A stretch of DNA of 64,000 bases from Pseudoxanthomonas kalamensis DSM 18571 (GTDB lineage Bacteria > Pseudomonadota > Gammaproteobacteria > Xanthomonadales > Xanthomonadaceae), in assembly GCF_010211745.1 (NCBI RefSeq), contig NZ_PDWQ01000003.1, positions 1-64,000 of the forward strand. Reading direction: 5' to 3'. Shown piece by piece: positions 48,665-51,762 of the stretch. The position numbers and the translations under genes are program-made. The number at the start of each line of letters is the position of its first letter. The stretch's first letter is position 1. The notes beneath the pieces are model-generated. The model had not been told where the DNA came from. It saw only the letters and a program-made list of their open reading frames with translations, and searched no databases.

Positions 48665-49624
48665 ATGAGGGGGAGTACTCCCAGAGGTTCGGAATTGCGG
48701 ACTTTTCTGTGTTTCCTGCTGGGTTTCCTGGGGATAGGGAACGCGCTGGCGGCGGAGCCGGCGCCGACGGCGGTTGCGGACGACGCGACGGAGCTGGTAC
48801 TGGGTCGCATCAGCGACGACCCCAAGGCGCATTACGAACAGCTCAAGCCGCTGCTCGACTTCGTGGTGCCGCGGATGCGCGATGTCGGCATCACCCGCGG
48901 CCGCATCCTGATGGCGCGCGACACCCAGCAGATGCTCAGCTACCTGCGCCGCGGTCGCGTGGACTGGGTGACCGAAACGGCCGGCACGGCGATGCAACTG
49001 CAGCAGCGCGCCGGCGCCCAGCCGTTGCTGTTGACCGAGCGCAGCGGGGTCAGCCGCTATCACACGGTGTTCTTCGTGCGCAACGACAGCGGCCTGGATT
49101 CGCTGGACGATCTGCGCGGGCACAGCATCGCCTTCCAGAACACCGGCTCCACCAGTGCCTACGTGGTGCCCGTCATCACCCTGCTGGATGCCGGCTTGAA
49201 GCCGGAGATCCTGCTTTCGCCCAATGACACGCCGTCGCCGGACACGGTGGGTTACGTGTTCGCGCGGTCGGAAGTCAACATCGCCGCCTGGGTGCACAAG
49301 CGGTTGGTCGATGCTGGCGCCTTCAGCAGCCTGGACTGGAACAACGACAGGCGCATGCTGCCGGCGTTCCGCAACGACATGAAGGTGATCCACGCAACCC
49401 CGGACTACCCGCGTGCATTGGAGATGGTTCGCGCCGGACTGGATCCGGCAGTGAAGGCACGCCTGCGCGAGGTGCTGCTGCAGGCGGCGGACGATCCGGA
49501 AGCGGCGGCGGCGATGAAGCAGTTCTTCGGCACGACCCGCTTCCTGCCGCTGGATGCGGAATCCGAACATGCTCTGGGGCAACTGCGCGGCGGCATCGTG
49601 CGGGTGCGGGAAAAAGTCGAATGA
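48665..49624 (+). CDS. PhnD-like periplasmic substrate-binding protein
   Basis: 319-residue periplasmic binding protein of the PhnD/phosphonate type. Signal peptide residues 12-32 (FLCFLLGFLGIGNALA). Signature positions: LVLGRISDDPKAHYEQLKPL, VDWVTETAGTAMQLQ, RYHTVFFVRNDSG and LRGHSIAFQNTGSTSAYVVP. No ABC permease or ATPase lies nearby. Instead its stop overlaps a GGDEF-EAL gene by 4 nt (ATGA), so it probably presents a ligand to that sensor. An earlier ATG (48635) is possible. Confidence 0.87.
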   Translation: MRGSTPRGSELRTFLCFLLGFLGIGNALAAEPAPTAVADDATELVLGRISDDPKAHYEQLKPLLDFVVPRMRDVGITRGRILMARDTQQMLSYLRRGRVDWVTETAGTAMQLQQRAGAQPLLLTERSGVSRYHTVFFVRNDSGLDSLDDLRGHSIAFQNTGSTSAYVVPVITLLDAGLKPEILLSPNDTPSPDTVGYVFARSEVNIAAWVHKRLVDAGAFSSLDWNNDRRMLPAFRNDMKVIHATPDYPRALEMVRAGLDPAVKARLREVLLQAADDPEAAAAMKQFFGTTRFLPLDAESEHALGQLRGGIVRVREKVE

Positions 49625-51762
49625 AGCTGCGCTTCGGCCTGCAGGCGCGCTTCCTGGCCGGTGCGCTGCTGACCCTGGCACTGGTGCTGGGCCTGCTGGC
49701 GTTGCTGCTGCTGCGCCAGGCGAGCATGCAACGCGAAGTCGGCGGCCTGGGGCGCGAGGCCATGCAGGCACTGGTCACCGAGACCTTGAACCAGCGCGGC
49801 ACGGCGATGATCGAACAGATGGCCGATGCGCTGGTCAACCCGCTGTACTTCTACGACCTGGACGAAATCGGCAGGATCGTCCGCGCCGCCGAACAGCAGC
49901 CCGACATCAGCTACGTGCTGGTGTACGACCCGGACGGCAATATTCTCCACGACGGATCGGAGGATATTTCCGCCTACGGGCAACGGATGACCGATCCGCT
50001 GGCACCCGCGGCGGTGTCCGCCGACCAGACCCTGCTGCAGTGGTCGCGGCAGGTCGTGGACGCTTCGCACCCCATCGCCATGGGCGAGCAGCGACTGGGA
50101 GGAGTGCGGGTGGGCATTTCGCTGGCCTATGCGCATGCCAGCGAGACCCGGGCGGCCGACATGCTCAGCAAGCGGTTGCGCGAGCTGGGCTTGCGGCACC
50201 TGGGCTGGTTCGCCGTGTTGCTGGCGATTTTGGCGCTGATCAGCGCCGGTACTGCCTGGTACGTGCAGCGCACCCTGGTACGGCCGATCCGACAGCTGGC
50301 GGACATGGCGCGGGTCATCGGCGTGGGCAAGTTCGATGGTACGCGTCTGGTCAGCACCCGCAACGACGAACTGGGCGAACTGATTCGCGCGTTCGGCGAC
50401 ATGAGCGACAGCATCGCCCGCCACGACCGCGACGTGCGCAAGATGGCCTATACCGACGCGCTGACCGGCCTGACCAACCGGCTTGCCTTCCGCGAAAGCC
50501 TGGACCACCGCCTGCTGATGCTGCGTGGTGCGGGCCGGCAACTGGCCTTGCTGTTCGCCGACATCGACGACTTCAAGCGGGTCAACGACAGTCTCGGCCA
50601 CGATGCCGGAGACGAAGTCCTGCTGCAGTTCGCCGGACGGATCCGGGAAATGGTCGAGCGCCTGGGCGGCGACGAGGCGCTGGTGGCGCGCTTTGGCGGC
50701 GACGAATTCGTGATCCTGGTGCAGAACGGCGACGTGCGCGCCACCGCCACCCACCTGGCCAGGCAGATGGTGCAGGACCTGAGCCAGCCGCTTACCGTAC
50801 TCGGTCGACAGGTGTTCCTTGGCACGTCGATCGGCATCGCGCTGTTTCCCGAGGATGCGTCCGATGCCAGCACGCTGATGAAGAATGGCGACATCGCCAT
50901 GTACCAGGCCAAGCTGGCCGGCAAGAACTGCTATCGCTTCTACAGCCGGGCGATGGATCAGGCGGTGGAGCGGCGCGTGCGGATCGAGCAGGAATTGCGC
51001 GGCGCATGGGACCGCGGCGAGATGAGCCTGGTGTACCAGCCGGTGTTCCGGGTGGCCGACCAGCGCATCGTCGGTGCCGAGGCATTGCTGCGCTGGCAGC
51101 ACCCGCAGCTGGGTTCGGTGGCTTCGGCAGTATTCATCGAGGTGGCCGAGCAAAGCGGACTGATCGAAGACATCGGCCCACGCGTATTGCGTGAAGCGTG
51201 CGCGGTGGCGACCGACTGGCGCAAACGGCACGAATCGCTGGACAACCTGTTCGTTTCGGTCAACGTGTCGCCGCGGCAGTTGCACAAGGGCAATCTGCCG
51301 GAACTGGTGGCCGACTGCCTGCACGAGAGCGGTCTGCCTTCGCGCTGTCTGCACCTGGAATTGACCGAGACCGCAGTGATCCAGGACGAGGCGCAGGCCA
51401 GCGCCATGCTGGCGCGGCTGCACCGTACCGGCGTGCGGCTGTGGCTGGACGATTTCGGCACCGGTTTCTCCGGCCTGAACCACCTGCGCCGGGTGCCGGT
51501 GGATGGGGTGAAGATTGACCGCAGCTTCGTCGCCGACCTGCAGCGCGATCCGGACGATCTGGCGCTGACCACGGCGATCATCGCGCTGGCGCATTCGCTG
51601 GGCATCACGGTGGTGGCCGAAGGCGTGGAAACATCGGCCCAGATGGAGTTGCTGAAGGCGCGCGGCTGCGATTACGTGCAGGGCTACCTGCTGGGTTACC
51701 CGGTGGACGCCGAAACCCTGGTCGATCTGCTGGATGCCCAGTGCCTGGAACCGGAAGGCTAG
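49621..51762 (+). CDS. Membrane GGDEF-EAL cyclic-di-GMP protein
   Basis: 713-residue inner-membrane protein: TM1 (about 9-32), periplasmic sensor (about 35-193), TM2 (about 195-214), HAMP (about 215-270), GGDEF domain with intact FGGDEF (359-363), EAL domain with AEALLRW (EAL 487-489), ELTET, DDFGTGFSGLNHLR, KIDRSFV and AEGVET. Both active sites look intact. No RxxD inhibitory site lies five residues before GGDEF. So it could make or degrade c-di-GMP. The 4-nt overlap with the PhnD gene couples their synthesis. Confidence 0.94.
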   Translation: MKLRFGLQARFLAGALLTLALVLGLLALLLLRQASMQREVGGLGREAMQALVTETLNQRGTAMIEQMADALVNPLYFYDLDEIGRIVRAAEQQPDISYVLVYDPDGNILHDGSEDISAYGQRMTDPLAPAAVSADQTLLQWSRQVVDASHPIAMGEQRLGGVRVGISLAYAHASETRAADMLSKRLRELGLRHLGWFAVLLAILALISAGTAWYVQRTLVRPIRQLADMARVIGVGKFDGTRLVSTRNDELGELIRAFGDMSDSIARHDRDVRKMAYTDALTGLTNRLAFRESLDHRLLMLRGAGRQLALLFADIDDFKRVNDSLGHDAGDEVLLQFAGRIREMVERLGGDEALVARFGGDEFVILVQNGDVRATATHLARQMVQDLSQPLTVLGRQVFLGTSIGIALFPEDASDASTLMKNGDIAMYQAKLAGKNCYRFYSRAMDQAVERRVRIEQELRGAWDRGEMSLVYQPVFRVADQRIVGAEALLRWQHPQLGSVASAVFIEVAEQSGLIEDIGPRVLREACAVATDWRKRHESLDNLFVSVNVSPRQLHKGNLPELVADCLHESGLPSRCLHLELTETAVIQDEAQASAMLARLHRTGVRLWLDDFGTGFSGLNHLRRVPVDGVKIDRSFVADLQRDPDDLALTTAIIALAHSLGITVVAEGVETSAQMELLKARGCDYVQGYLLGYPVDAETLVDLLDAQCLEPEG

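What the first reader, a model, noticed from the sequence alone, without database searches (positions are those of the whole stretch)
48665..51762. Translationally coupled PhnD-like binding protein and GGDEF-EAL regulator
An orphan phosphonate/phosphate-type binding protein without ABC transporter genes overlaps by 4 nt a membrane GGDEF-EAL protein with a periplasmic sensor. The pair looks like a ligand-dependent c-di-GMP switch, possibly reading oxyanions.
Basis: partly seen in the sequence, partly recalled or inferred. Interest (0 to 1): 0.6.

Follow-up and report, generated by a model that had tools for sequence, protein, structure and literature searches.

The report
Known-type binding-protein and c-di-GMP sensor pair
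Two overlapping genes encode a secreted phosphate-type binding protein and the membrane c-di-GMP enzyme it most likely reports to; the pair is the counterpart of one already described in a Xanthomonas species, so the finding is real but mostly not new.

Summary
A PF12974 (PhnD-type) periplasmic binding protein gene overlaps by 4 nt (ATGA) a membrane sCache-HAMP-GGDEF-EAL gene. It is the only PF12974 match in its own genome, and no PhnE permease passes the family cut-off. One correction: the first gene probably starts at TTG 48695, not ATG 48665. [quoted passage not shown] XAC2383 is PDB 5ub3. So it is a new member of a known kind. The refuting test, free separation, fails for the binding protein: in 395 family genomes it occurs without the sensor in 3, all incomplete assemblies. 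The sensor outlives it in 17 genomes, at least 6 independent changes. In a phylum-wide sample the same binding-protein/sensor pair is attached to GGDEF-EAL, GGDEF, PAS-GGDEF-EAL, histidine-kinase and SpoIIE outputs: an exchangeable co-receptor module. The STS oxyanion motif is near-invariant, but ligand, direction of the switch and physical contact were not shown here.

The parts
48644..48655 (+). conserved upstream element TTCGGCTANNCT (here TTCGGCTACCCT), possibly a -10-like promoter core of the operon
   Evidence: at most 1 mismatch in 40 of 91 SBP+ loci and 4 of 16 SBP- loci, against 0.4% and 0.3% of shuffles; promoter role is inference
48695..49624 (+).
   Evidence: Pfam; start codon comparison; 58% identical to the XAC2383-type protein in L094
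48695..48751 (+). Sec-type signal peptide (ending NALA-A), read by eye, no predictor run
   Evidence: sequence
49148..49156 (+). STS oxyanion-binding motif, residues 162-164 (numbering from ATG 48665)
   Evidence: S162 and S164 invariant, T163 98%, in 93 binding proteins plus 5ub3; aligned with STS of PtxB; that STS binds the oxyanion is recalled
49621..49624 (+). ATGA overlap of the two genes
   Evidence: -4 spacing in 82 of 93 distinct relatives
49621..51762 (+). membrane sCache-HAMP-GGDEF-EAL protein, 713 aa
   Evidence: Pfam; 61% identical over 705 aa to the partner in the genome whose binding protein matches 5ub3
49768..50121 (+). periplasmic sCache (PDC-fold) sensor, residues 50-167, between two long helices
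   Evidence: AlphaFold2 model mean pLDDT 80.6, pTM 0.58; Foldseek best crystal-structure domains WalK and CitA, E 2e-6 to 7e-6
50269..50415 (+). HAMP domain
50446..50928 (+). GGDEF domain, RFGGDEF intact, no RxxD I-site
50989..51696 (+). EAL domain with EAL, N, ELTE, DDFGTG, KID, EGVE and QGY motifs intact
   Evidence: that these are the catalytic motifs is recalled

Best explanation
This is the Pseudoxanthomonas orthologue of X. citri XAC2383-XAC2382: a soluble periplasmic binding protein that no longer serves transport and acts as co-receptor for the membrane enzyme encoded directly after it. Shown here: orthology, architecture, conserved overlap, intact catalytic motifs, and dependence of the binding protein on the receptor in gene content. 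Inferred: the binding protein closes on a small oxyanion (phosphate most likely) through its STS motif and then docks on, or leaves, the sCache dimer. The change passes through the second membrane helix and HAMP to the GGDEF-EAL tandem and shifts it between synthesis and breakdown of c-di-GMP. Because GGDEF is retained in every one of the 93 SBP-bearing c-di-GMP partners compared, while EAL is missing in one genus, synthesis is probably the regulated core activity.
For: 5ub3 is the best solved relative (3.9e-107); PMC10942540 Table 1 names 5ub3 as XAC2383 (passage); the 2018 pair paper is seen as a reference. Genome G308 (100% rounded to 5ub3) has the same bicistron with sCache-HAMP-GGDEF-EAL, -4 overlap and the same suhB-trmJ neighbours. 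Co-occurrence: 327 of 395 genomes have both, 17 sensor only, 3 binding protein only (G044, G344, G404; 72, 87 and 78% complete), 48 neither (counting G412's 2.5e-6 match as no orthologue because its locus lacks the gene). GGDEF intact in 93 of 93 SBP+ partners. Outside the family, 18 of 23 SBP loci from 18 genomes have a receptor with the same Cache profile next door.
Against: The 2018 paper was not readable here, so its data on activity, ligand and interaction are not used. 17 genomes keep the receptor without the binding protein, so it can work, or at least persist, alone. Outside the family 5 of 23 SBP loci lack the sensor next door. Ligand and direction are untested. Faster change of the periplasmic domain after loss is only partly supported: 7 of 7 SBP- groups exceed the SBP+ average ratio of 1.34, but in genus g11 the SBP+ sisters have the higher ratio (3.76 against 2.76).
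Confidence: 0.82

Rival explanations
1. The partner is mainly a phosphodiesterase: the GGDEF domain is a regulatory GTP-binding module and the binding protein controls breakdown of c-di-GMP.
For: EAL catalytic motifs are intact in the window protein and in nearly all of the 89 SBP+ partners in which the domain aligns; the four best NCBIfam scores are phosphodiesterases (DibA, Tlr1612 family, PRK10060, DosP), all far under their cut-offs; no I-site in 93 of 93.
Against: GGDEF is intact in 93 of 93 SBP+ partners and three partners of genus g24 have GGDEF and no EAL; the published title calls the orthologue a diguanylate cyclase.
Confidence: 0.3
2. The binding protein is a leftover or solitary scavenging protein, and the adjacency is only operon inertia in a slowly changing neighbourhood.
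For: It belongs to a transport family, and suhB and trmJ stay upstream in 4 of 8 longer loci examined.
Against: It does not reach the transporter-family cut-offs (80.6 of 112 bits, 71.3 of 261). In the other 4 of those 8 loci (G060, with only 2.9 kb upstream held, G063, G086, G092) no suhB or trmJ match was found, yet the pair is intact. Outside the family the same pairing holds with other outputs. It is without the sensor in only 3 of 330 genomes, all incomplete.
Confidence: 0.06
3. The Cache domain senses its own ligand and the binding protein only tunes it, so the switch has two inputs.
For: Cache fold close to ligand-binding CitA; invariant N73, P74, Y76, D79, H110, D111, G112, R158, R163 in 22 sensors; receptor retained after loss of the binding protein in 17 genomes.
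Against: No pocket or ligand was tested; invariant residues may be structural.
Confidence: 0.3

Closest known systems
XAC2383-XAC2382, Xanthomonas citri (Teixeira et al. 2018, J Biol Chem 293:10767; seen only as a reference; PDB 5ub3, 5ub4, 5ub6, 5ub7)
   Same: Orthologous binding protein (58%) and partner (61%), same order, overlap, domain order and neighbours
   Different: EVL in place of EAL in the Xanthomonas partner; otherwise no difference in architecture found
NspS-MbaA (Vibrio cholerae; abstract of PMC8967002)
   Same: Periplasmic receptor complex with a membrane enzyme that makes or degrades c-di-GMP; that MbaA is a GGDEF-EAL protein is recalled
   Different: Polyamine ligand, and (recalled) a PotD-type binding protein; P0001 matches only PF12974 in Pfam
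ArrX / AioX arsenic-sensing binding proteins (ArrX; AioX listed under PF12974)
   Same: PF12974-type binding proteins; their pairing with sensor kinases is recalled
   Different: Output here is GGDEF-EAL; low sequence similarity (ArrX 34 bits)
PtxB/PhnD/HtxB phosphite and phosphonate transport binding proteins
   Same: Fold family by sequence; STS motif aligns in PtxB
   Different: Scores under the transporter-family cut-offs, no phosphonate permease over cut-off

Membership tests
XAC2383-XAC2382 receptor-cyclase pair | binding protein orthologous to 5ub3/XAC2383 | tested here: met
   361 bits, 3.9e-107; 58% identity to the G308 protein
XAC2383-XAC2382 receptor-cyclase pair | directly followed by sCache-HAMP-GGDEF-EAL partner in the same neighbourhood | tested here: met
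XAC2383-XAC2382 receptor-cyclase pair | physical or functional coupling of the two proteins | not testable with these tools
   needs binding and activity assays
XAC2383-XAC2382 receptor-cyclase pair | diguanylate cyclase activity | not testable with these tools
   GGDEF motif intact; activity not measured
PhnD-type ABC transporter binding protein | reaches NCBIfam TIGR01098 / TIGR03431 cut-off | tested here: not met
   80.6 of 112.05 and 71.3 of 261.1 bits
PhnD-type ABC transporter binding protein | cognate PhnE permease in the genome | tested here: not met
   no match over cut-off; PhnC not searched
NspS-MbaA | PotD-type (polyamine) binding protein (recalled definition) | tested here: not met
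   only Pfam match is PF12974
LapD-type inside-out receptor | LapD equivalog model; degenerate GGDEF and EAL (recalled) | tested here: not met
   150.9 of 1020 bits; motifs intact
AioX/ArrX with sensor kinase | partner is a histidine kinase (recalled) | tested here: not met
   partner is GGDEF-EAL, although relatives outside the family do pair with kinases

The most novel reading that the evidence does not exclude
This binding-protein subfamily and its Cache sensor form an old, portable co-receptor module whose cytoplasmic output has been exchanged repeatedly (histidine kinase, SpoIIE phosphatase, PAS-GGDEF-EAL, GGDEF-EAL, GGDEF), and in which the binding protein is lost again and again while the receptor is rewired to work alone.
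Probability: 0.6. Interest if true: 0.45.

Novelty: new member of a known kind. Interest (0 to 1): 0.3.

Why it matters
Few c-di-GMP enzymes have a known extracellular input (general knowledge). Here one binding-protein/sensor pair sits on several output types, and at least six independent losses of the binding protein give natural controls for what it contributes. That makes ligand identification, and the question of direct versus binding-protein-mediated sensing, testable by comparing close relatives.

Tried and rejected
Padloc gave no match for either protein. BtsD of Stenotrophomonas (PMC11404848, abstract and passages) was considered as a homologue of the partner and set aside: its operon is btsR-btsK-btsD, with no binding protein mentioned in the passages seen. 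XOC_2120/XOC_2944 (PMC4823724, passages) and the Xanthomonas oryzae review (PMC6637768, passages) could not be tied to this gene by name. The c-di-GMP sensing review PMC8846402 (passages) did not mention XAC or X. citri. Paper searches (listings only) brought no further description of this pair.

A split into separate GGDEF and EAL genes in G007 (L114) looked like a variant, but the sequence at the junction shows a frame break inside the GGDEF domain, so it is not counted as a design variant. The faster-evolution test gave a Mann-Whitney p of 3e-6 on raw identities, but rows are related; the branch-length version is mixed, so it is reported as suggestive only. Weak binding-protein matches in G062 and G085 (L124-L126) had no sensor next to them. 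L131 and L132 gave no binding-protein hit at the phmmer threshold used and no sensor, and the weak hit in L133 had no partner reported.

Two of my own errors were found on checking and mended. The trmJ query was in the wrong frame; with the right frame the same four loci match and the same four do not. The sensor profile included the HAMP part; with the Cache part alone the count falls from 19 to 18 of 23 (L256 drops out; L253 and L257 are weak, 16.6 and 18.9 bits).

Full report
The observation. The window (contig C94 of a genome of about 3.03 Mb) carries a PF12974 binding protein whose stop codon overlaps the start of a 713-aa protein by four bases (ATGA, 49621-49624). Pfam finds PF12974 in the first (6.7e-46) and sCache_3_2, HAMP, GGDEF and EAL in the second. 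The genus is Pseudoxanthomonas: same-genus handles have contigs of exactly the same length as named records, for example G026:C11 and NZ_PDWT01000001.1, P. yeongjuensis, both 1572505 bases. The binding protein is the only PF12974 match in the genome. PhnE gives no match over its cut-off; the two weak ones, side by side at 237-239 kb of the contig, were not identified. PhnC was not searched. Neighbours by Pfam: SecD, SecF, an inositol monophosphatase (suhB-like), a SpoU methylase (trmJ-like) upstream; ExoD, a CNNM/CorC protein and a PHO4 phosphate transporter downstream. The names suhB and trmJ are my own recognition.

Start codon. All 13 relatives compared have an in-frame TTG 33-40 codons before the GRISDDP motif; in L038 it is the only start found, in L062 the only other one is four codons before the motif, and two Stenotrophomonas loci (L050, L055) also have an ATG there. 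In the window this is TTG 48695, with AGAGG seven bases upstream, whereas I see no such site before ATG 48665 (by eye). The gene is therefore probably 48695-49624.

What it is. The best solved relative is 5ub3 (3.9e-107), which PMC10942540 lists as XAC2383 (Table 1 passage). [quoted passage not shown]) but is not in the library. Searches for the locus tags, the title phrases and the DOI found two, one and one papers; the passages I saw in them do not describe the experiments. Genome G308, whose binding protein is 100% (rounded) identical to 5ub3, has the same bicistron: 58% identity for the binding protein, 61% over 705 aa for the partner, the same domains, the same -4 spacing and the same suhB and trmJ neighbours (78% and 64% identity). 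The pair is therefore an orthologue of a described pair.

Do the genes separate? With the 5ub3 sequence as query 331 of 395 family genomes match; with the window's sensor (without HAMP), 344 of 395. Sixteen genomes have the sensor only, three the binding protein only (G044, G344, G404; 72, 87 and 78% complete; in G044 the sensor gene runs off the contig; the other two were not inspected). One of the 331, G412, has only a weak match elsewhere (2.5e-6), and its locus lacks the gene, so I count 327 with both, 17 sensor only, 3 binding protein only, 48 neither. For the 17 sensor-only genomes a locus was fetched. In 16 of them trmJ (motif VGTQHPGN) lies upstream of the receptor and no ORF listed upstream scores above 6.1 bits against the binding protein; the remaining locus, L147, ends too soon to tell. 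On a tree of 105 GGDEF-EAL parts the SBP- state needs 8 changes, at least 6 forced by well-supported branches, against 15.2 in shuffles (quick tree, long branches flagged). Since the pair is also found in other families of the order, I read these as losses. The binding protein therefore depends on the receptor, not the reverse.

A natural experiment. Raw identities suggest that the periplasmic domain drifts further in SBP- genomes than the enzyme domains predict (mean residual -0.075, p 3e-6; HAMP control p 0.51; GGDEF against EAL control p 0.02). With branch lengths on a fixed tree, the periplasmic/enzyme ratio is 3.08 on SBP- and 1.34 on SBP+ branches (control ratio GGDEF/EAL 0.76 and 0.57), and all seven SBP- groups exceed 1.34. 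But the ratio is also higher on shallow SBP+ groups (1.70 to 3.76), and in g11 the SBP+ sisters (3.76) exceed the SBP- group (2.76); in g68 and g55 the SBP- groups are higher (3.95 against 1.70; 5.22 and 3.71 against 1.98). I treat it as suggestive.

Active sites. In 93 distinct SBP+ partners GGDEF is intact in all and the I-site RxxD is absent in all 93. EAL aligns in 89: 68 EAL, 17 EVL, 3 ETL, 1 EAR; the other catalytic motifs are intact in nearly all. The four without EAL are three of genus g24, GGDEF only (L101, L109, L118), and L114, where the frame is broken. Among 18 SBP- rows (17 genomes; G054 counted twice) two have altered GGDEF (SGDEF, GGGEF). The binding-protein motif STS is S 100%, T 98%, S 100% in 93 proteins plus 5ub3 and aligns with the STS of PtxB. 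The sensor model (22 sequences, mean pLDDT 80.6, pTM 0.58) is a single Cache domain between two long helices; the best crystal-structure domains are WalK and CitA.

Beyond the family. With a 16-row profile, 11 of 369 class genomes match at 1e-20, 7 of them outside the family. Partners: PAS-GGDEF-EAL in G519, G581, G642 and G783 and a hybrid histidine kinase in G667, all five with the Cache profile (83 to 146 bits); in G618 a HAMP protein followed by a kinase, without a Cache match; none in G572, where the binding protein is a fragment. Of 398 phylum genomes 25 match at 1e-25, 18 outside the family with 23 loci. In 18 of 23 the next gene matches the Cache-only profile (16 at E 3e-10 or better, L253 and L257 weakly): 3 GGDEF-EAL, 2 SpoIIE, 12 histidine kinases (5 by Pfam, 7 by the phospho-acceptor motif only) and 1 cut off by the contig end. 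Five lack it: L237, L248, L249, L251, and L256, a kinase that matched only when HAMP was included. The unit that persists is thus binding protein plus Cache sensor, and the output is exchanged. Whether the 2018 paper already reports this I could not see.

Mechanism. My reading, by analogy with NspS-MbaA, which on binding one polyamine or another makes or degrades c-di-GMP (abstract of PMC8967002): ligand-loaded binding protein docks on, or leaves, the Cache dimer and the HAMP relays this to the enzyme. A solute-binding-protein survey describes such docking on receptors, including cyclases and phosphodiesterases, as general and widespread (PMC9602780, passages). Contact, ligand and direction are inferred.

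Verdict. Real, well conserved, and the orthologue of a published pair; interest lies in the repeated loss and the output exchange rather than in the window itself.

Noticed in passing
48644-48655 (+): Conserved element TTCGGCTANNCT upstream of the pair: at most one mismatch in 40 of 91 SBP+ loci against 0.4% in shuffles; may be the operon's promoter core.
   Followed up: partly
48671-48682: Perfect 12-bp palindrome GGGAGTACTCCC between the promoter-like element and the probable start; single match in the window, 0.06 expected with up to 1 mismatch, and not seen in 13 relatives.
   Followed up: partly
L142-L158: 17 sensor-only genomes; in 16 of them trmJ lies upstream of the GGDEF-EAL gene with no binding-protein gene found between.
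   Followed up: yes
L246, L250: Binding-protein relative next to HAMP-SpoIIE phosphatases with the same type of sensor; L246's partner scores highest with the SiaA model, far under its cut-off.
   Followed up: partly
62722-63207 (-): A second GGDEF domain in the window; the genome has 12 GGDEF matches.
   Followed up: no
54650-55777 (+): PHO4-type phosphate transporter gene about 3 kb downstream of the pair; any link to a phosphate signal is speculation.
   Followed up: no
L114 (G007): Frame break inside the GGDEF domain separates the EAL part: pseudogene or sequencing error.
   Followed up: partly
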